Assembly: GCA_034231615.1 (NCBI GenBank)
Contig: CM067309.1
Coordinates: 26,497,661-26,561,660 of the forward strand
Reading direction: 5' to 3'
Source: Meghimatium bilineatum
Lineage: Eukaryota; Mollusca; Gastropoda; Stylommatophora; Philomycidae
Length of the DNA stretch: 64,000 nucleotides
Positions 10,723-64,000 of this stretch are shown in pieces. Position 1 is the first letter of the stretch. The number at the start of each line of letters is the position of its first letter. The translations under genes were made by a program, and so were the position numbers. The notes beneath the pieces were generated by a model. The model was not told the origin of the DNA and made no database searches. It worked only from the letters and a program-made list of their open reading frames with translations.

Positions 10723-10773
10723 TGTTTATTGCTAATTATTTATTTTTAACATTATGTTAGTTAATATTTAATA

Positions 10774-10848
10774 CCCCATCGAGGCCAGCTCCTTGGCATG
10801 GAGATGGGGCTTAGTCCAGCCAGCAGAGGCTGGAAACTAAGACTGGCC
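10774..10848 (+). ncRNA. HDV-like self-cleaving ribozyme at the LINE-A 5' end (predicted)
   Basis: The first 75 nt fold into the nested double pseudoknot of hepatitis delta-like ribozymes. P1 (7 bp): 10774-10780 with 10803-10809. P2 (6 bp): 10783-10788 with 10843-10848. P3 (3 bp): 10790-10792 with 10800-10802. P4 (6 bp): 10816-10821 with 10828-10833. J4/2 contains ACTAAGA (10836-10842), with C10837 at the place of the catalytic cytosine of HDV-type ribozymes. Cleavage would fall just before C10774, exactly at the boundary with the target duplication. The copy at 58471 keeps the fold and swaps the P3 pair T-A to A-T. This is read by hand; no folding program or assay was run. Confidence 0.8.
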
Positions 10849-10969
10849 GGGCCCTCCCACATTCGGGCAGGACCACAGTCTTGCCTAGCAAGTAAAGGTG
10901 CTGAAGTCAGCGAAATTTGGCCAGAAGGCGCACCGCAACAATCAGAATGTCATGCATTATCGCACATGA

Positions 10970-11850
10970 ATGTTTATATCTGCATTACCCTGTTATGGTG
11001 CTAACCCTGTGACGACTCACCAGGCAGGAGTAGCAGCGGGCCCTATACCTCGAAAGGGCCCACCCCATACGACTGGAGGTCCTCTTCGATTGCCTTGTGG
11101 AGCCAGGAGGCACAAGAGTAATATCACTGACCAACAAATATTACCAACCAATGAGACATCACTTACAATAATGCACTGGAATGCTGAGGGTGTCAATAGC
11201 AAAATAGATGACTTTAGCAAGAAATTAGAATTAGAAAACACCCTTCTTAAGGAACAGGTCAGCATTTGTTGCATACAAGAGACACCTCAGCAAAGATGAA
11301 GCCTTTAAAATTGCAGGTTATCAGTGCTTTAGAGCTGATCGAATAGACAGAAGAAAAGGAGGTATACTAACTCTAGTCAAAAAATAATATCAGCGCACAT
11401 CAAACTGAGCTATACATAGAAGGAGCAGAATACCAGGTCCTTCAGCTAAAGACCAAGAACACAGACTTCCACCTACTAAATTATTATTGACCAGCCCTGG
11501 ACACAGGCCTTTCCCTGGACACATTACCGTACAGAGGAAGACTGATAGTATGTGGAGATTTTAATAGTCACTCATAAAGCTGGGGTTATGACCACATAGA
11601 TAAAAGAGGAGAAGAACTTGAAAGCTGGCAAGATGACAAATGTCTTCTATTGCTTAGTAAGCCAAAAGATCCTCCAACATACTACTCAAGAGCATGGCAA
11701 ACCACTTCCACGCAAGACTTGGCATTGTACTCAGCAGACCTAACCTAGGAAATCAATAGAACAGTGGGGAAGCAACTTGGAGGTAGCGACCATCGACCAG
11801 TCCTTCTTAGTATTAAAAATGAACTCACATGAAATGAATGTAGCCTTCCA
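10970..11850 (+). pseudogene. LINE-A endonuclease domain (APE type), broken
   Basis: An open stretch from Met at 10970 reaches TIMHWNAEGVNSKIDDF and CCIQET (the Asn and Glu motifs of AP endonuclease-like domains), then shifts frame near 11280. Later frames keep YRGRLIVCGDFNSHS (the GDFN motif, ~11530-11575), GEELESWQDDK and GGSDHRPVLLSI (the SDH motif, ~11780). So the catalytic motif order is complete although the frame is broken. It would nick the target DNA for priming of reverse transcription. Confidence 0.85.
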
Positions 11851-11922
11851 AGATGGAATTATAAAAAAGCAAATTGGGGACTATTTAAACACCGCAGTAG
11901 TGTTTTAGCTGGACAAATAGAT

Positions 11923-13481
11923 ATGGAAGGAAAAGACATTAACGCCATAGTCAAAGAGTTCAATAAATGTATTCATCAAGCTGCCAAGGAAGCAATACCA
12001 AGAGGTGCATGCAAACAATACAAGCCATACTGGAGTGAACAACTAGAACTACTGCAAGAAGAATTAGAAAAAGCACAGACGGAAGTGGAAAATAACCCAA
12101 GCCAGGAACATCACAACAAACATCAACACGCAAAAGCTAAATTCCAAAGAGCCAAACTAGAAGCTAGAAGAAAGAGCTGGAAAGAGAAAACAGAATCCTT
12201 AAATTTTGAAAAGGATGGAAGAACACTGTGGAAACTGGTTAAACAACTAAATGATGAGGGAAAAGGAAGAAGCACAAACATAACACTCATACAGAATGGC
12301 ATAATGATTACAGGAAAGCAAGAAGTAGATAATTTCGCTAGGATATTTGCTCAAGACTGCAATATTGAAATTAGTCCAGAGAAACAGCGTACAGTGCGGA
12401 GCAACCAAAAAAGTACAATGGAACATGCTCAGACTAGAAATCAGTGATGAAACAGCGCAGATGAAATTATGGATACATTGTTCACGTATAGTAATTGGAA
12501 TTAGCGGTCTCTAAACTAAAGCTAAATAAGTCACCAGGTATTGATGAAATATCAAATGAAACGATAAAGAATCTAGGAACAACAGCCAGAAGGAAACTAT
12601 TGGACATCCTAAATATTAGCTGGACTGCTGGAAAAATCTCACAAATCTGGAGAGAATCAATTATGGTCCCTTTGCTTAAACCTAGAAAAGATGGAACAAC
12701 ACCAACTAGCTACAGACCAATTAGTCTTACAAGTTGCATGTGCAAAACAATGGACCAGGGACTAAAATTTCACCTGGAAAGTAGAAAATTCATTGCACCA
12801 CAGCAGGCAGGTTTCAGGCAATGCTACTCCACAGAGCATCAAACCACATACCTCTCACAGGAAATTGAGGATGCTTTCCAAGACAAAAAATCAGTTTTAG
12901 TGGCATGGATTGATTTACAGAAGGCCTTTGATAAAGTATGGAAAGAAGGATTGCTTCAAAAAATGAGAAACTACAAGATATGTGGAAATATGTATAGATG
13001 GACGAAAGCCTTTCTTCACAATAGAAGAGCCAGAGTACAAGTAAATGGCAAAAAAAGTAGGAAAGTATTACTACGACATGGAGTGCCTCAGGGAGGTGTT
13101 CTATCACCCACTCTTTTTCTCATATTTATCAATTATCTAATGGAAGAAATACTCCGTGGAACTAGAGCAGCACTATATGCAGATGACTTAGTTCTATGGT
13201 GCACACATGAGAGTGCCATGGTTGCCACAAAAATGCTTCACAGAGCCATGGACATTTTGACTAATTGGGCTGACAAATGGTGTGTAAGTATCAATATAGA
13301 GAAGTCAGCAACAACCCTTTTTACACTTTCACCAAAACAAAGAGCAAGAAACATCTATGTAAATAAAACTGTCTTAAAGGTAGATGACCAACCCACATAT
13401 CTTGGTGTGACATTTGATGCCGAAATGACATGGAAACATCATATCAGCAACGCAGAAACAGCAAGGCCAGAAGGAATATAG
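11923..13481 (+). pseudogene. LINE-A reverse transcriptase region
   Basis: Two long frames, 11923-12447 (174 residues, linker rich in Lys/Glu) and 12495-13481 (328 residues, RT), are separated by a break. The RT part shows NKSPGIDEISNE, SYRPISLTSCMCK, QQAGFRQCYSTEHQT, motif A AWIDLQKAFDKVW, VPQGGVLSPTLFLIF, the active site ALYADDLVLW (~13170-13200) and PTYLGVTFDAE. The YADD site is intact. A further break at 13481 leads to a thumb-like segment (RNIAILRKLSGTTWGANERI.. HLEYGSTAWS) that runs to about 13657. Confidence 0.92.
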
Positions 13482-13773
13482 CTATACTAAGAAAACTGAG
13501 TGGGACAACTTGGGGAGCTAATGAAAGAATTCTAAACAATGTATACCAACAAGCCATTCGACCACACTTGGAATATGGTTCTACAGCATGGAGTTCATCA
13601 TCAAACACTACACTACAAAACCTAGATAGAGTACAGAACCAATTACAGGCGCAATGAGATCCACACCAATCATAGACATGCCGAATATCGAAGGAATGCA
13701 GTCATTGAAATAGCGTAGAGATGCTAAAATTATAATTCATGGAGAAAAGTTTCTTTCCTACAATAGTCACCCA

Positions 13774-14565
13774 ATGAAGGAAAGATTCCAGAATTTGTCA
13801 CAAGGACGGCTTAAAAGAAGCAGCTTCATACAGCAGGCCAAGCGTCTACGTAGACAGGTATCAGATCTGCCAGAGGTAACAATACCACTGATACCTCAAC
13901 CAGAACACACCCCATGGGAAAAATGGACATGCCTACCAGTGACCATCCAAACAACAGTAGCAGGTGTGCATGGGGATGAACATCAGAATAATCTGCAGAA
14001 AATAGTAGCAGCTCTCAGTTTCCTTGATGATGTTTACCCAAGTGATCTATGGACCAGAGTATATACAGATGGATCAGCACAGAATGCAGTAAAAAATGGA
14101 GGAAGTGGTGTATATGTAGAATACCCAGATGGCACCACTGATACCACTTGTATACCAACAGGGAATTACTGCAACAACTATGACTCTGAAGTCAAAGCTA
14201 TTTATACAGCTGCAGAGAAACTGTTAACATTGGACAGGACCTCACACCCTATTGTAATACTTACAGATGCAAGGTCAGTACTAGAGGCATTACAATCCAT
14301 AAAACTTCCAGAGTTAAAAGAGGTATTGTCCATAGTACAAAATAGGTGTAGAGTTATACTGCAATGGATTCCATCACACTGTGGAATAGCAGGAAATGAG
14401 AGAGCTAATCAACTCGTCAAGGAAGGTGCTAACATGCAACAACCAGATGTACCAATCAGCTATCACCATAAGAAATCCATGATAAAGATACAACGAAAGC
14501 CTAACTTACCTCCACGGGACGACTACCACCTACTTAACAGACAAGAACAGGTCATCATATTTTGA
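13774..14565 (+). pseudogene. LINE-A RNase H domain
   Basis: A 263-residue open frame carries an RNase H1-like domain. The catalytic acids appear as VYTDGSAQNAV (Asp), NNYDSEVKAIYTA (Glu) and ILTDARSVLEAL (Asp). The final motif reads PSHCGIAGNERANQL, with Asn where the family has Asp (GNEKADQL in the copies at 38845 and 63090). The frame ends at a stop (~14563) and resumes after it. The domain would remove RNA from the cDNA hybrid. The Asp-to-Asn change and the flanking breaks argue that it is inactive. Confidence 0.92.
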
Positions 14566-14598
14566 CTGAGAACTGGACACAATAGACTAAACAGCCAT

Positions 14599-14877
14599 AT
14601 GTATACAAAATTTAAAATTGGCACAACAGCAAAGTGTAATTGTGGACAAGCCAACCAGACTTCAGAACATATCCTTCAAGAATGTGCAAACTATGACACA
14701 TTAAGATGCACATACTGGCCTTCTGATACATCAATGAATGTTAAACTTTATGGTACAAAACAAGAAATGGGCACATACTGGCCTTCTGATACATCAATGA
14801 ATGTTAAACTTTATGGTACAAAACAAGAAATGGAAAACACTGTCCAATTTATACAAGAAACAACATTGCAGATATAG
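14599..14877 (+). pseudogene. LINE-A C-terminal Cys/His tail with 63-bp duplication
   Basis: The 92-residue frame contains CNCGQANQTSEHILQEC, a C-x-C..H..C motif found after RNase H in I-like LINEs. The segment YWPSDTSMNVKLYGTKQEM is present twice because of an almost exact 63-bp tandem duplication (14708-14770 and 14771-14833). Copies at 39230 and 63200 have it once, so the duplication is private to this copy. Confidence 0.9.
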
Positions 14878-15009
14878 ACATTATTAGCGAACGAAAGAAG
14901 AAGAAAAAGAAGTATTTAATAGTATACTTTTCACTTTATGTAGTATTTTTCAAGTGATATAATGGGATTTGTACAACTAATCAAGAACACAAATACAGCT
15001 AATCACAAC

Positions 15010-38148: not shown

Positions 38149-40135
38149 TACAGTCATTCCTCGCTACTTCACGGTTCATTTATTGCGGCTTTAGTACATC
38201 GCAGATTGTTCAAAAATATTCATCAAAATTGAGGAATTATGACGCGCAAGCTGCCAGCACGCCTGCAAAAGGCAGAGTGTGCCCACACAATTCAAAATAC
38301 ACGTCTCTGATTGGCTGGCTAGCATCCCACCATTTGATATCCCTCCCGACTCGGGAATCTCGCAAGCTGATTGGCCTAGATGTTTCCCCCACCTTCGCTC
38401 TCATACCCAGCGAAGACGACCGCACTCATTCAAATAAATGTTTGAGTGATGCTTAGTCTCAAGGTGTGCTAATTTTTGCTGTTCTCGTGTATCTTTTTGT
38501 GCAAAATAGTGTTTTTCTTCTTGTGATGCCCATGAAAATGGCTCCTAAATGTCCTCTACCCTCTAAATCCTCTAGTGAAGAAGAAGAGAAAAATGATGAC
38601 ATTGAACGAGAAAGTTAATTTATTGGACATACTTAAAGTAGGCCATTGCTATGCATCTGTTGTATGCCATTACAGATTGAACGAATCAACGGTTCGCTAC
38701 ATAAAAAAAAAAAAGATGAAGTGAATATCCGTAAAAGTGTCTCGATATCGTTCTCCAAGGACACTAAGCGAGTTGTGACTTTTCGTAATAAGCGAATTGT
38801 GAAAATGGAGAATGCCTTATCAGTGTGGATATCAGACTGTTGGGGACCTACAGCCTGTGGTATTCCTGACAGATGCAAGGTCAGTGCTTCAAGCTCTCCA
38901 GTCTGGAAAACTAACAGACTTAAAAAAACTACTTAGCGGATTGTCTTACCAGTATAGGGTAACCATGCAGTGGATACCCTCTCACTGTGGAATACCAGGA
39001 AATGAAAAAACAGACCACTGGCTAAGGAAGGTGCTGCCGAAGACCAACCAGATACACCAATCACCTACCATCAGAAAAAACAGATGATAAAGTCAATAAG
39101 AAAGCCACAAACACCAACACAAGATGACTATCACAATATGAACAGATCAGAACAAGTTATAATTCTACGTCTCAGAACAGGACACAACCGACTCCGCAGT
39201 CACATGTATACAAAGTTCAAGATTGGCAACATGGCCATGTGTACATGTGGACAGGCAGCACAGAGTGCCAAACATATACTTCAAGAGTGTTCTGAGCATG
39301 AAACGCTGAGGCAGACATATTGGCCAGAGGAAACAACACTGGAATCAAAGCTCTATGGGACACTGTATAAACTACAAAAGACAGTGAGTTTTATTAAGGA
39401 GACAGAATTACAGATATAGACATGTTTCAAGTGAACGAAAGAAGAAGAAGAAGACTGTTGGGAAAAGAATGTTAGTCTTGATACCAATATGATTTAGACT
39501 AAAGCCAAAGCCTTGTATGATAGCCTCGTTCCTGAAGGAGAGTTGAACGAAGACAATGAAAATGAACCTCAGCCTAGTACCAGTGCCTCGAGTGATCCTA
39601 CCCCACGAGAAAAATATGGTTTTGTTGCCAGCAAGGGCTGGTTCGAGAAATTCAAGAGGAGATTTGGCCTTTGCAGCTTTCCTTTGTACTGGGAGACCTC
39701 CTCGGCAGACCAAGAGGCAGCTCTTCATTACGCTGAGGAAGATAATTGATAATTGAGTTATAAAAGAAAAGTTGTTATAAGAATAAAAGAGTTATAAAAA
39801 CATATTTACAGTATGTACACTTTAGTTACATCTATGTATGTTACACATGCACGTATCATATTTATATTATTTAAACATTATTTTATGTATGTAATATACA
39901 TACATAAAATATTATTTATACTATTAATATTTTATTTACATGTTTGAAACTATTCATTAATGTCCTAATGATAACTTATGCACTTATATGGTTTCATATA
40001 CATGTATTGATATATTATACATACACAAAAAATGTACGTGTGTTAAAAATGAGAGGATGATACTACTTTGCGGTTTTTCACTTATCGCGGCTGGTTCTGG
40101 TCCCTATTAACCGCGATAACTTAGGGATGACTGTA
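38149..40135 (+). mobile_element. Tigger/pogo-like DNA transposon, internally deleted
   Basis: The inverted ends CAGTCATTCCTCGCTACTTC (38151) and, on the opposite strand, CAGTCATCCCTAAGTTATCG (40133) are flanked by TA on both sides, as expected of the Tc1/mariner superfamily. The coding remnant reads TLNEKVNLLDILKVGHCYAS, RLNESTVRYIKKKKDEV, KMENALSVWI and, after a nested LINE, TKAKALYDSLVPEGEL, SKGWFEKFKRRFGLCSF and SADQEAALHYAEEDN: the two DNA-binding halves (CENP-B type HTH) of a Tigger transposase. The DDE catalytic domain is missing, so this is a non-autonomous remnant. Confidence 0.85.
38834..39462 (+). mobile_element. LINE family A insertion in Tigger, 11-bp target duplication
   Basis: The insertion (38845-39451) sits between AGACTGTTGGG repeats (38834-38844, 39452-39462). 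It starts inside RNase H (PVVFLTDARSVLQALQSGKL, QWIPSHCGIPGNEKTD), then shifts frame, continues as RSEQVIILRLRTGHNRLRSH, CTCGQAAQSAKHILQECSEH and KTVSFIKETELQI, and ends with (GAA)n. Skipping it restores the Tigger frame (VWISDCWEKNVSLD). Confidence 0.92.
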
Positions 40136-47179: not shown

Positions 47180-47312
47180 CTGAATCTCCCTTGTAGCAGG
47201 ACCATTGTCCTACTAGATGTCCAGCAGGATGTAGTCCAGAGATGGAAATGCATTGTGTCGCTGTTTTATTTGTGCCAATGCCCTGACACATCCATCTTCG
47301 GTGGGCAATTTA
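47180..47312 (-). mobile_element. GAA-SINE copy
   Basis: The minus strand reads GAAGATGGATGTGTCAGGGC, ATTGGCACAAATAAAACAGC, GCATTTCCATCTCTGGACTA, CATCCTGCTGGACATCTAGT, AGGACAATGGTCCTGCTACA and GCGAGTTTAAGAATGA, co-linear with the copy at 7044. Together the copies define a well-conserved core. Confidence 0.8.
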
Positions 47313-47454
47313 ATTCAATAACGAAGACCTTATTGTCCAGTTCCAAGTACATTCTAGAACAGTTAGTTCCCTTAATTATGTCTTTTACTAATTCATAAAT
47401 TGCATCCATTGGACTACAATTGTTCTATATTGTTACACATATTTGTTTGGTTTT

Positions 47455-47960
47455 ATGTACATGTTTGTGTGATTTGATGTTCATGTTTGTGTGATTTGAT
47501 GTTCATGTTTGTGTGATTTGATGTTCATGTTTGTGTGATTTGATGTTCATGTTTGTGTGATTTGATGTTCATGTTTGTGTGATTTGATATTTATATTTGT
47601 GTGATTTGATGTTCATGTTTGTGTGATTTGATGTTCATGTTTGTGTGATTTGATGTTCATGTTTGTGTGATTTGATATTTATATTTGCGTGGTTTGATGT
47701 TCATGTTTGTGTGGTTTGATGTTCATGTTTGTGTGATTTGATGTACATGTTTGTGTGATTTGATGTACATGTTTGTGTGATTTGATGTACATGTTTGTGT
47801 GATTTGATATTTATATTTGTGTGATTTGATATTTATATTTGTGTGGTTTGATGTTCATGTTTGTGTGGTTTTATGTTCATATTTGTGTGGTTTTATGTAC
47901 ATGTTTGTGTGGTTTGATGTTCATGTTTGTGTGGTTTTTTGTTCATATTTGTGTGGTTTG
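47455..47960. repeat. 22-bp minisatellite, about 23 units
   Basis: Unit GTTTGTGTGATTTGATGTTC+AT with variants in the last six bases (GTTCAT, GTACAT, ATTTATAT) and GTGATTT/GTGGTTT alternation. The variants are not randomly mixed: similar units are adjacent, as expected from local slippage. No coding. Confidence 0.95.
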
Positions 47961-48129
47961 ATGTAAAGAGTAAGAAATGAGATATCTGACAGAAGCAGTA
48001 ATAAAATGAGATGACATCAAGAATTTCTTGGGGAATACTATTCCTTATGAAAAATATAGAACAGCAAACAATAACAAGGCTATGAAAACTTGAAAACAAT
48101 TAGGAATTTCTATTTATAACATTTGAAAC

Positions 48130-50405: not shown

Positions 50406-50664
50406 TAAATTACAAATATAGATTTGGTTAGGTGCATTGTGCCTCTTATGTCCTTTCAACCGGGCACATTAGTCTAATTTGGTTATATAAAAGAAATAGT
50501 GGAGATTATGGTTCTGGTAATCCAGCCACCATGACCTCCAGCTTAATTAATAATAGTATTATACAGGGTGTCTATAAAATATAAAATCACTGTGCACGGA
50601 ATTTACAATGAAATAGATGTGCTCAATATAATATTAGTGAAAGACGTGTATTACTATGGCCCAA

Positions 50665-51825
50665 TGTACAGCACAACTCAGTAGATTGATGTTACTGCGA
50701 CTCAGTAAATTGATGTTACCGTGACTCAGTAGATTGATGTTACCACGAATTAGTAGAGTGATGTTACCACGAATCAGTAGAGTGATGTTACAGCGAGTCA
50801 GTAGAGTGATGTTACCACGACTCAGTAGAGTGATGTTACAGCGAGTCAGTAGAGTGCTGTTACCACGACTCAGTAGAGTGATGTTACAGCTACTCAGTAG
50901 ATTGATGTTACCACGAATCAGTAGAGTGATGCTACAGCGAATCAGTAGAGTGCTGTTACCACGACTCAGTTGAGTGATGTTACAGTTACAGCGACTCAGT
51001 AGAGTGATGTTACAGCGACTCATTAGAGTGATGTTACCGCGACTCAGTAGAGTGATGTTACAATGACTCAGTAGAGTGATGCTACCGCGACTCAGTAGAG
51101 TGATGTTACCGTGACTCAGTAGAGTGATGTTACAGCGACTCAGTAGATTGATGTTACCACGAATCAGTAGAGTGATGTTACAGCGAATCAGTAGAGTGCT
51201 GTTACCGTGACTCAGTAGAGTGATGTTACAGCGAATCAGTAGAGTGCTGTTACCACGGCTCAGTTGAGTGATGTTACAGCGACTCAGTAGAGTGATGTTA
51301 CCAGAACTCAGTAGAGTGATGTTACAGCGAATCAGTAGAGTGCTGTTACAATGACTCAGTAGAGTGATGCTACCGCGACTCAGTAGAGTGATGTTACCGT
51401 GACTCAGTAGAGTGATGTTACAGCGACTCAGTAGATTGATGTTACCACGAATCAGTAGAGTGATGTTACAGCGAATCAGTAGAGTGCTGTTACCGTGACT
51501 CAGTAGAGTGATGTTACAGCGAATCAGTAGAGTGCTGTTACCACGGCTCAGTTGAGTGATGTTACAGCGACTCAGTAGAGTGATGTTACCAGAACTCAGT
51601 AGAGTGATGTTACCGCCACTCAGCAGAGTGATGTTACAACGACTCAGTAAAGTGATGTTATCGCGACTCAATACATTGATGTTACAGCGACTCAGTAAAG
51701 TGATGTTATCGCGACTCAATACATTGATGTTACAACGACTCAGTAAAGTGATGTTATCGCGACTCAATAGATTGATGTTACAGCGACTCAGTAGTGATGT
51801 TACAGTGACTCAGTAGAGTGATGTT
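50665..51825. repeat. 24-bp minisatellite, about 48 units, with a 288-bp higher-order repeat
   Basis: The unit is GCGACTCAGTAGAGTGATGT+TACC with variants at the first six and the middle positions. A block of 12 units (51061-51348) is followed by a copy starting at 51349 that is identical for about 11 units (264 bp). Because 24 is a multiple of three, long open frames appear on both strands (a 377-residue one on the minus strand made of NITLLSRC/NITLLSRG repeats), but they have no features of a protein beyond the repeat. Confidence 0.95.
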
Positions 51826-52042
51826 ATTAAGATTACTGCCGTATCATTCACATTTAAGTCCAATAGAATTTGTTTTGGTTAAAATTCAGGGAGCAGTGGC
51901 AAAAGAAAGTAATACCTTCAAACTGAATGATGTTCAGAAAATTGCATATACTATGCTCTCCGCCATTGACAAAGAATTCTGGATATAATGTAAGGACAAT
52001 ATATTGTAAATGGAAGAAGAATATTGGCAGAAGGATGGGTAA
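51826..52042 (+). pseudogene. DDE-superfamily (mariner-like) transposase C-terminus
   Basis: A frame with two stops reads LRLLPYHSHLSPIEFVLVKI, QGAVAKESNTFKLNDVQKIA, SAIDKEFWI and MEEEYWQKDG. This is the end of DDE_3-type transposases, with the LPPYHxxLNPIE block that carries the last catalytic residue. It starts exactly where the 24-bp array stops. At 50564 a possible left end CAGGGTGTCTATAAA follows TA, so the array may have grown inside this transposon. No right inverted end was found. Confidence 0.7.
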
Positions 52043-58459: not shown

Positions 58460-58723
58460 AGTTTACTTGTCCCCATAGAGGCCAGCACCTTGAAGAGGTG
58501 ATGGGGCTTAGTTCAGCCATCAGGGGCTGGAAACTAAGACTGGTCGGGCACTCCCACTCGAGCAGGACCATAGTCCAGCCCAAATAAGCAGAGGGCTGAA
58601 GACGGAGGCAACCAGCCAAAAGGTGCACAGGATGCCACGCACAAAACATGATTTTTATTAAGGAGACAGAATTACAGATATAGACATGTTTCAAGTGAAC
58701 GAAAGAAGAAGAAGTTTACTTGT
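58460..58723 (+). mobile_element. 242-bp miniature LINE-A derivative (ribozyme plus 3' end), 11-bp target duplication
   Basis: The element (58471-58712) lies between exact repeats AGTTTACTTGT (58460-58470, 58713-58723). Its first ~177 bp are the LINE-A 5' end, including the ribozyme and the GCAGGACCA.. CCAGCCAAAAGGTGCAC 5' UTR. Its last ~65 bp are the LINE-A 3' end (TTTTATTAAGGAGACAGAAT, TACAGATATAGACATGTTTC, AAGTGAACGAAAGAAGAA). All coding sequence is absent. The target duplication shows the deleted form itself was inserted by retrotransposition and is not a later deletion of a full copy. Confidence 0.9.
58471..58545 (+). ncRNA. HDV-like ribozyme, second copy (predicted)
   Basis: The same fold as 10774-10848. 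P1 58471-58477/58500-58506, with the innermost pair lost (A58477 opposite G58500). P2 58480-58485/58540-58545, with one G-T wobble. P3 58487-58489/58497-58499, in which the outer pair changed from T-A to A-T. P4 58513-58518/58525-58530, with one wobble. J4/2 ACTAAGA is unchanged, with the putative catalytic C at 58534. The weaker P1 may reduce activity. Confidence 0.75.
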
Positions 58724-63089: not shown

Positions 63090-64000
63090 AAGTAGCTTCT
63101 TCTTCTTCTTCTTTCGTTCACTTGAAACATGTCTATATCTGTAATTGTCTCCTTAATAAAACTCACTGTCTTTTGTAGTTCATACAGTGTCCCATAGAGT
63201 TTTGATTCCAGTGTTGTTTCCTCTGGCCAATATGTCTGCCTCAGCATTTCATGCTCAGAACACTCTTGAAGTATATGTTTGGCACTCTGTGCTGCCTGTC
63301 CACATGTACACATGGCCGTGTTCCAATCTTGAACTTTGTATACATGTGACTGCGGAGTCGGTTGTGTCCTGTTCTGAAACATAGAATTATAACTTGTTCT
63401 GATCTGTTCATAATGTGATAGTCATCTTGTGTTGGTGTTTGTGGCTTTCTTATTGACTTGATCATCTGTTTTTTCTGATGGTAGGTGATTGGTATATCTG
63501 GTTGGTCTTCGGCAGCACCTTCCTTAGCCAGTTGGTCTGCTTTTTCATTTCCTGGTATTCCACAGTGAGAGGGTATCCACTGCATGGTTACCCTATACTG
63601 GTAAGACAATTCGCTAAGTAGTTTTTTTAAGTCTGTTAGTTTTCCAGACTGGAGAGCTTGAAGCACTGACCTTGCATCTGTCAGGAATACCACAGGCTGT
63701 AGGCCAGAGTTGGAGTTCAGCAGTTTTTTAGCTGCCACACTAATTGCCTGGATTTCTGCATCATAATTATTGCAGAATTTTCCTGTCGGTGTTCTGATTG
63801 TATCTCTAGGCTTGTGTGGATATTCTATATATACACCTGCACCTCCATTCCTCACAGCATTCTGTGCTGACCCATCTGTGTACACTCTGACCCATATATC
63901 TTGTGGATATTCCTCATCCAGGAAACTGAGGGTGACTGTCATTCGCTGCACACTGTTCTGTTCGTCCTCGCTTAGTATTCCTTTCACATGGGTCTGAATG
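63090..64000 (-). pseudogene. LINE family A, 3' part, running off the window
   Basis: The minus strand gives the best family A RNase H: a 248-residue open frame (63241-63987) with VYTDGSAQNAVRNGGAGVYI, CNNYDAEIQAIS, VFLTDARSVLQALQSGKL, QWIPSHCGIPGNEKADQLAK (final Asp kept) and RSEQVIIL. A frameshift near 63300 precedes CTCGQAAQSAKHILQECSEH and the 3' end with (GAA)n at 63092-63107. The 5' part lies beyond the window end. Confidence 0.92.

What the first reader, a model, noticed from the sequence alone, without database searches (positions are those of the whole stretch)
10774..10848. HDV-like ribozyme at the exact 5' end of a LINE
The first 75 nt of LINE family A can form all four helices of the delta-type double pseudoknot: P1 7 bp, P2 6 bp, P3 3 bp and P4 6 bp. 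The P2-proximal joiner reads CTAAGA, close to the joiner of the antigenomic delta ribozyme, with a cytosine at the catalytic place. The predicted cleavage site coincides with the junction to the 9-bp target duplication, so the ribozyme would release the 5' end of the element from a read-through transcript. Such ribozymes are known from R2, RTE and trypanosome L1Tc/ingi elements. I know of no description for this family, but could not search.
Basis: partly seen in the sequence, partly recalled or inferred. Interest (0 to 1): 0.9.

Follow-up and report, generated by a model that had tools for sequence, protein, structure and literature searches.

The report
Self-cutting RNA at a retrotransposon's start
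A jumping gene in what looks like a snail genome, and many of its short deletion copies, begin exactly with a 75-base RNA that can fold like the self-cutting ribozyme of hepatitis delta virus, so it probably trims its own front end; similar devices are known in other jumping genes, and cutting itself is not yet shown here.

Summary
The delta-type fold is really there: P1 7 bp, P2 6, P3 3, P4 6, all Watson-Crick, at the first base of LINE A (10774-14912, 9-bp TSD). A strict descriptor finds one start site in 7.68 Mb of shuffled window. Sixty best-scoring genome loci, with 53 distinct flanks, join at the same base. A second LINE family and short deletion derivatives, 12 with 10-12-bp TSDs, share this 5' end. 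Between families, nt 1-75 are 89% identical, the next 55 nt 84%, then 64-70%. The eight differences in nt 1-75 break no pair (simulated p 0.005-0.02) and include one compensatory pair in P3. The candidate catalytic C is invariant in 17 of 17 distinct copies. It resembles the trypanosomatid L1Tc/ingi ribozyme, which also starts with C. Weak points: no Rfam hit, poor P1.1, a 6-nt J1/4 that can pair with J4/2, thin covariation, no cleavage data. The window copy has A at L3 position 25, where 27 of 30 family-A loci have G, so it may be impaired. Most likely a new, probably Ingi-type, member of the known class of LINE 5' HDV-like ribozymes.

The parts
10774..14912 (+). LINE family A copy (endonuclease, RT, RNase H; this copy frameshifted)
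   Evidence: 5' and 3' ends set by 9-bp TSD; Pfam RVT_1 and RNase_H; intact 1288-codon ORFs in genome copies L089 and L090 (Pfam on L089)
10765..10773 (.). 5' target-site duplication TATTTAATA
   Evidence: exact copy at 14913-14921
14913..14921 (.). 3' target-site duplication TATTTAATA
10774..10848 (+). HDV-like ribozyme candidate; predicted cleavage between 10773 and 10774
   Evidence: CM R1, built from this and other copies, finds only this and 58471 in the window
10774..10780 (+). P1 5' strand CCCCATC
   Evidence: pairs with 10803-10809
10783..10788 (+). P2 5' strand GGCCAG
   Evidence: pairs with 10843-10848
10790..10792 (+). P3 5' strand TCC
   Evidence: pairs with 10800-10802; first pair T-A in family A, A-T in family B
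10793..10799 (+). L3 TTGGCAT (family A majority TTGGCGT; 10798 is A here)
10800..10802 (+). P3 3' strand GGA
10803..10809 (+). P1 3' strand GATGGGG
10810..10815 (+). J1/4 CTTAGT, complementary to 10836-10841
10816..10821 (+). P4 5' strand CCAGCC
10828..10833 (+). P4 3' strand GGCTGG
10834..10842 (+). J4/2 AAACTAAGA with candidate catalytic C10837
   Evidence: columns 61-69 invariant in 17 distinct copies
10843..10848 (+). P2 3' strand CTGGCC
12495..13481 (+). RT reading frame of LINE A
   Evidence: PF00078 E 3.7e-37
13774..14565 (+). RNase H reading frame of LINE A
   Evidence: PF00075 E 1.1e-11
58471..58712 (+). Short internally deleted element with family-B ribozyme and the LINE 3' tail
   Evidence: TSD AGTTTACTTGT 58460-58470 and 58713-58723, the 3' border being ambiguous by a few bases
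58471..58545 (+). Second ribozyme copy (family B; C7 to A makes one P1 mismatch)
   Evidence: 86% identical over 87 nt; CM R1 108.2 bits (the model was built from it among others)

Best explanation
The first 75 nt of this LINE are an HDV-like self-cleaving ribozyme. A transcript that reads in from upstream host DNA, or starts upstream, folds the nested double pseudoknot as soon as P2's 3' strand is made. It cuts itself just 5' of the first C, and so gives an RNA whose 5' end is the exact element end with a 5'-OH. That RNA is translated (the ORF starts at nt 197 in intact copies) and is copied by target-primed reverse transcription. Deletion derivatives that keep the ribozyme and the 3' tail ride on the same machinery. 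Shown: location, pairing potential, raised conservation, exact 5' ends, derivatives. Inferred: cleavage, its site, the read-through source, use of the product.
For: Four Watson-Crick helices in delta order at the element's first base; 1 start site in 7.68 Mb of shuffles. Sixty loci (the 30 fetched of 40 best hits in each) have 53 distinct flanks, all joining at the same C, with no conserved base at -1; best-hit selection favours untruncated copies. Twelve of these 60, the window's own short element included, show 10-12-bp TSDs next to a GAA-rich tail, lengths 236-512 bp, all keeping the ribozyme; intact full-length copy L090 has a 12-bp TSD. Families A and B: 89.3% identity in nt 1-75 against 83.6, 63.6, 68.1 and 70.0% in the next four stretches; 8 differences, 4 in loops, 4 in helices, none breaking a pair, one compensatory pair. 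Pair 11-74 in P2 appears as G-C, G-U and A-U. Seventeen distinct copies: 98.4% of cells paired against 23-50% for slid controls. Candidate catalytic C invariant in 17 of 17. L1Tc nt 1-28, taken from the text of PMC4748587, share C1, CCC at the start of P1, P3 5' strand CACC (as in family B) and a 7-nt L3 U...CGU (as in family A); several trypanosomatid Pr77 ribozymes cleave in vitro at C1 (PMC4035085, passages).
Against: No Rfam match at gathering score, nor an HDV-type match up to E 10 on the element. P1.1 can offer only one G-C pair (L3 G22 or G23 with C37; next to it U-U, or in family A a G-U). J1/4 is 6 nt, against 0-2 in R2 (PMC3774820). The unconstrained minimum-energy fold pairs CTTAGT with ACTAAG and leaves P2 unformed. 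Covariation is thin: one pair changed on both sides, a count that 140 of 500 shuffles also reach, and 98.4% paired against a shuffled mean of 97.4%. In 20 old copies picked for P1 changes 15 of 40 cells are unpaired. The window copy has the L3 G-to-A change at a site where the same change stopped detectable cleavage in a Nasonia R2 ribozyme, though it does not fully stop HDV (PMC3774820). Six of 17 distinct copies have G instead of U at L3 position 20. Adequate predicted folding is no proof: two trypanosome SIDER copies that fold adequately did not cleave (PMC4035085).
Confidence: 0.78

Rival explanations
1. The exact 5' end is set by an internal RNA polymerase II promoter that starts transcription at C1, as described for L1Tc Pr77, with a downstream element CGTG; the fold is secondary or unused.
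For: L1Tc transcripts start at +1 and need CGTG at +25 to +28 (PMC4748587). The family-A majority has CGTG at +24 to +27. An internal promoter would also explain constant 5' ends and deletion derivatives.
Against: The window copy has CATG, and the family-B copies read have AGTG or AGAG there. A promoter does not explain retained pairing between families or the delta topology. In L1Tc promoter and ribozyme coexist, so this is not exclusive.
Confidence: 0.12
2. A conserved but non-catalytic 5'-UTR RNA fold (P1 hairpin plus extended P4), for instance for binding the element's protein or for translation.
For: It is the predicted minimum-energy fold; CTTAGT/ACTAAG is kept in both families, in 16 of 17 distinct copies (L046 differs).
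Against: It leaves the conserved GGCCAG/CTGGYC pair unexplained. The alternative hairpin inside P1 of family A is not kept in family B. P3 and P2 changes follow the delta pairing.
Confidence: 0.08
3. Chance complementarity in a G+C-rich 5' end.
For: A loose descriptor is satisfied at many places in the window.
Against: Strict descriptor 1 start in 7.68 Mb shuffled, position fixed by the TSD, second family pairs as well.
Confidence: 0.02

Closest known systems
L1TcRz / Pr77 hallmark of trypanosomatid L1Tc/ingi elements
   Same: At the exact 5' end of a LINE and of its short non-autonomous relatives; first base C; P1 begins CCC; P3 5' strand CACC (as in family B); 7-nt L3 ending CGU (as in family A); L1Tc letters 1-28 taken from paper text, cleavage of several relatives at C1 from passages of PMC4035085.
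   Different: P1 and P2 letters differ; joining region 2 nt here against 3 by my reading of L1Tc. L1Tc beyond nt 28 was not available from any call. Animal host; cleavage untested here.
R2 retrotransposon ribozyme and R2 SIDEs
   Same: Ribozyme at the LINE 5' end; short internally deleted elements keep ribozyme and 3' sequence (PMC3774820, passages).
   Different: R2 inserts in 28S rDNA and often cleaves upstream; J1/4 0-2 nt. Here dispersed targets, endonuclease of the APE type, J1/4 6 nt.
HDV antigenomic ribozyme
   Same: Nested double pseudoknot; joiner reads C-U-A-A-G (HDV features recalled).
   Different: P1 starts with C; P1.1 not C/G-rich; no peripheral domain.
RTE/Baggins, R4 and Dong ribozymes
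   Same: 5'-end cleavage in non-LTR elements (PMC3774820, passages).
   Different: Other LINE clades; sequences not compared here.

Membership tests
HDV-like ribozyme | P1, P2, P3, P4 able to form in nested double-pseudoknot order | tested here: met
   pairing kept in family B and in 98.4% of cells over 17 distinct copies
HDV-like ribozyme | Cytosine at the catalytic place in J4/2 | tested here: met
   C10837, invariant in 17 of 17 distinct copies
HDV-like ribozyme | U20 and G25 of L3 (reverse wobble; conserved G per PMC3774820) | tested here: inconclusive
   Family-A majority and 9 of 15 distinct B copies have both; the window copy has A25 (27 of 30 A loci have G); 6 of 17 distinct copies have G20
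HDV-like ribozyme | P1.1 mini-helix | tested here: inconclusive
   One G-C pair with C37 is possible, at best with a G-U beside it in family A (read)
HDV-like ribozyme | Score with public HDV-type covariance models | tested here: not met
   No match at gathering score nor HDV-type match up to E 10 on the element strand. I treat this as a detection limit, not a definition; that diverse LINE ribozymes lie outside these models is my assumption
HDV-like ribozyme | Mg-dependent self-cleavage 5' of P1 | not testable with these tools
   needs an in vitro assay
R2-type ribozyme | J1/4 of 0-2 nt | tested here: not met
   6 nt CTTAGT (range); not filed as R2-type
Ingi clade of LINEs | Single ORF with APE-type endonuclease, RT and RNase H | tested here: met
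   1288-aa ORF, PF03372/PF14529, PF00078, PF00075; Ingi and Nimb are nearly the only I-superfamily LINEs reported in molluscs (PMC10294476, passages); that this layout marks Ingi and that Nimb has two ORFs is recalled
Ingi clade of LINEs | RT phylogeny with Ingi references | not tested
   No named Ingi, L1Tc or Nimb RT was available

The most novel reading that the evidence does not exclude
The element is an animal Ingi LINE, and its 5' end is homologous to the trypanosomatid Pr77 hallmark: one 75-nt module that serves as ribozyme and as downstream promoter element (CGTG inside L3), kept since before animals and trypanosomatids parted. In the animal form, J1/4 has become complementary to J4/2, so the ribozyme can switch itself off after cleavage.
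Probability: 0.3. Interest if true: 0.75.

Novelty: new member of a known kind. Interest (0 to 1): 0.5.

Why it matters
If it cleaves, it adds a numerous and apparently recently active animal LINE lineage (40 near-identical scored copies of 1795 first-look candidates; two intact ORFs) to those that make their own 5' ends by a delta-type ribozyme, and gives a young system with autonomous and many-sized non-autonomous copies in which the rules for what a short parasite must keep can be read off. If homology with the trypanosomatid ribozyme holds, it bears on whether LINE ribozymes arose once or repeatedly.

Tried and rejected
Rfam at gathering score and at E up to 10 found no HDV-type match on the element. 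Family-B L088 gave a 16-bit drz-agam-1 match (an HDV-type family, recalled) on the strand opposite to the element, cut-off 37, taken as chance. The Rfam HDV model searched over the whole genome gave nothing, but its control rang nowhere either, so it says nothing.

Relatives outside this genome: viral contigs none; genome contigs six loci encoding a related RT, in which a loose descriptor showed nothing convincing.

The second-family copy running off the window's right end is 5'-truncated as far as similarity to A shows. Twenty copies picked for two changes in the 5' strand of P1 were decayed old insertions: of 40 cells 1 Watson-Crick, 23 wobble, 15 unpaired, 1 gap; 3 changed on both sides and still pair (L073, L076, L082).

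Further LINE families were sought by protein P0068 and by three more patterns (54, 91; 90, 94; 127, 129, 131, 133, 135, 138); none of these was answered. All unanswered calls (server busy): 4, 6, 19, 25, 30, 53, 54, 59, 61, 62, 67, 69, 71, 73, 75, 79, 81, 83, 86, 90, 91, 94, 95, 98, 101, 103, 106, 110, 114, 117, 119, 121, 123, 127, 129, 131, 133, 135, 138; genome searches answered: 16, 33, 39, 89. So wider covariation is not done.

Paper searches made: 12, 27, 28, 36, 49, 63, 82, 111, 112, 136; 49 and most of 82 were noise. For molluscs or gastropods: one search gave 2 papers (listing only), 112 none, 111 one bivalve survey whose text has no 'ribozyme'. The key papers on LINE ribozymes that I asked for by id are not held, so absence from print is not established.

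Full report
What is there. LINE A lies at 10774-14912 on the + strand, bounded by TATTTAATA at 10765-10773 and 14913-14921. Its first 75 bases hold P1 (7 bp), P2 (6), P3 (3) and P4 (6), all Watson-Crick, in the order of the delta ribozyme, with J4/2 AAACTAAGA and C10837. A strict descriptor of this kind found one start site in 60 dinucleotide shuffles of the window, both strands, 7.68 Mb; in the real window the visible part of the output shows 10774 and an AT repeat. A looser descriptor hits dozens of places, so only the strict, position-fixed form is informative.

Genome copies. The window lies in a 1.61-Gb genome in 32 contigs. By protein similarity it is a mollusc, probably a gastropod: the nearest named RT is from Bradybaena, 67% over 80% of the query. 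A 93-base query gave 1795 first-look candidates, of which the 40 best were scored, all at 99-100% identity. A query with the second window copy gave 1637 candidates, 40 scored. I read 60 loci, 30 from each search. They have 53 distinct upstream flanks; the repeats are L032/L037 and the seven loci L054-L060, apparently duplications. No base is conserved at -1 (most common base 55%), while +1 to +3 are C in all 53. Because these are the best-scoring copies, 5'-truncated ones are left out by selection; the point is that the homology stops at one base, not that every copy is complete. Positions -14 and -13 are T in 68% and 75%, as expected for the nick site if TSDs are about 12 bp long (inference).

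Autonomous and short elements. Two full-length A copies, L089 and L090, have an intact 1288-codon ORF starting at nt 197; L090 is 4099 bp with a 12-bp TSD. The L089 protein has an APE-type endonuclease, RT and RNase H. A second family (L045, L047/L088, L048), about 70% identical to A in DNA (L088) and 39-63% in protein over the matched stretches, carries the same ribozyme; L088 is 5013 bp with an 11-bp TSD. Short elements keep the ribozyme end and the GAA-rich 3' tail and drop the rest. Twelve of the 60 loci, L031 (the window's own copy) among them, show this with 10-12-bp TSDs, at lengths 236-249, 330-333, 401 and 509-512 bp; L005, derived from family A, shows a 7-bp one. The other loci gave no TSD or a spurious one within the 1.5 kb fetched (three were misoriented); for the family-A ones the 3' end presumably lies beyond it. 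The window's second copy, 58471-58712, is one of these short elements.

Selection on the structure. Between A (L089) and B (L088), nt 1-75 are 89.3% identical, nt 76-130 83.6%, 131-196 63.6%, 197-400 68.1%, 401-1100 70.0%. The eight differences in nt 1-75 comprise four in loops (L3, L4) and four in helices. Of these, T17/A29 to A17/T29 is a compensatory change in P3, and C43 to T and C74 to T turn G-C pairs into G-U. No pair is broken; random placement of eight changes achieves this with probability 0.005-0.02, by transition bias. In B-type copy L045 the P2 pair 11-74 becomes A-U. Over 17 distinct copies 98.4% of cells are paired, shuffled mean 97.4% with 4 of 500 shuffles reaching the observed value, slid controls 23-50%; but only one pair changes on both sides, which 140 of 500 shuffles equal. 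Twenty old copies chosen for two changes in P1's 5' strand show mostly decay: 15 of 40 cells unpaired, 23 wobble, 1 Watson-Crick, 1 gap, with 3 changed on both sides and still paired. Evidence from covariation alone is therefore modest; it is the sum of conservation, pairing retention between families and exact ends that carries the case.

Problems. L3 with J1/4 allows only one G-C pair for P1.1, at best with a G-U beside it in family A. J1/4 CTTAGT is complementary to ACTAAG in J4/2; this extended P4 is part of the predicted minimum-energy fold and would hide C10837. It should not coexist with a working J4/2, so either P2 displaces it or it is an off-state. A structural switch is proposed for L1Tc once downstream RNA is made (PMC4035085, passages), so an off-state has a precedent, but this is inference. 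The window copy has A at 10798 where the L3 G is expected. In a Nasonia R2 ribozyme a G-to-A change at the conserved L3 G left no detectable cleavage, though in HDV it does not abolish it (PMC3774820, section read). Adequate predicted folding is not proof: two trypanosome SIDER copies that fold adequately were inactive (PMC4035085, passages). Bench work should start from the majority sequence.

Comparison. L1Tc Pr77 letters 1-28 can be put together from the text of PMC4748587: primer for 1-15, mutants for 16-24, downstream element for 25-28 (passages and part of section 6). They give P1 starting with C, the P3 5' strand CACC found in family B, and L3 UCAACGU against UUGGCGU in family A. The CGTG promoter element of L1Tc at +25 to +28 corresponds to CGTG at +24 to +27 in the A majority. 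Several trypanosomatid members cleave in vitro at C1 (PMC4035085, passages). Because RNase-H-bearing I-superfamily LINEs reported in molluscs are Ingi or Nimb, apart from an unclassified clade in one cephalopod (PMC10294476, passages; that RNase H marks the I superfamily is recalled), and A has a single ORF, Ingi is my best guess; no tree with references could be made. Whether the likeness to L1Tc is descent or convergence is open: PMC3774820 argues that the limited active site can explain likeness by convergence (section read).

Verdict. Most likely a genuine HDV-like ribozyme at the 5' end of a probably Ingi-type animal LINE and its short deletion derivatives: a new member of a known kind, with cleavage still to be tested and with details (P1.1, J1/4) that depart from the textbook form.

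Noticed in passing
window 10798: L3 base A instead of the G found in 27 of 30 family-A loci read; the copy in the window may be catalytically impaired.
   Followed up: yes
window 14708-14833: A 63-bp exact tandem duplication inside the 3' part of LINE A.
   Followed up: no
window 38847-39404 and 63146-63703: 98-99% complementary inverted copies of a second RNase-H LINE family; both are 5'-truncated as far as similarity to A shows.
   Followed up: partly
window 50547-51900 (approx.): Long array of 24-bp repeats overlapping a 377-aa open frame on the minus strand.
   Followed up: no
window 47306-48052: Array of 22-bp repeats, mostly about 90% alike.
   Followed up: no
L054-L060 (contig C13): Seven copies with the same 20-nt upstream flank on one contig, in at least two clusters: apparently a segmental or tandem duplication that carries a ribozyme-bearing element.
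   Followed up: no
L062, L063: Contigs filed as a Bathymodiolus gill symbiont encode a LINE-type RT 30-32% identical to LINE A, probably host contamination.
   Followed up: partly
60 loci, positions -14 and -13: T-rich dinucleotide about 13 nt upstream of the 5' end, probably the endonuclease nick preference.
   Followed up: partly
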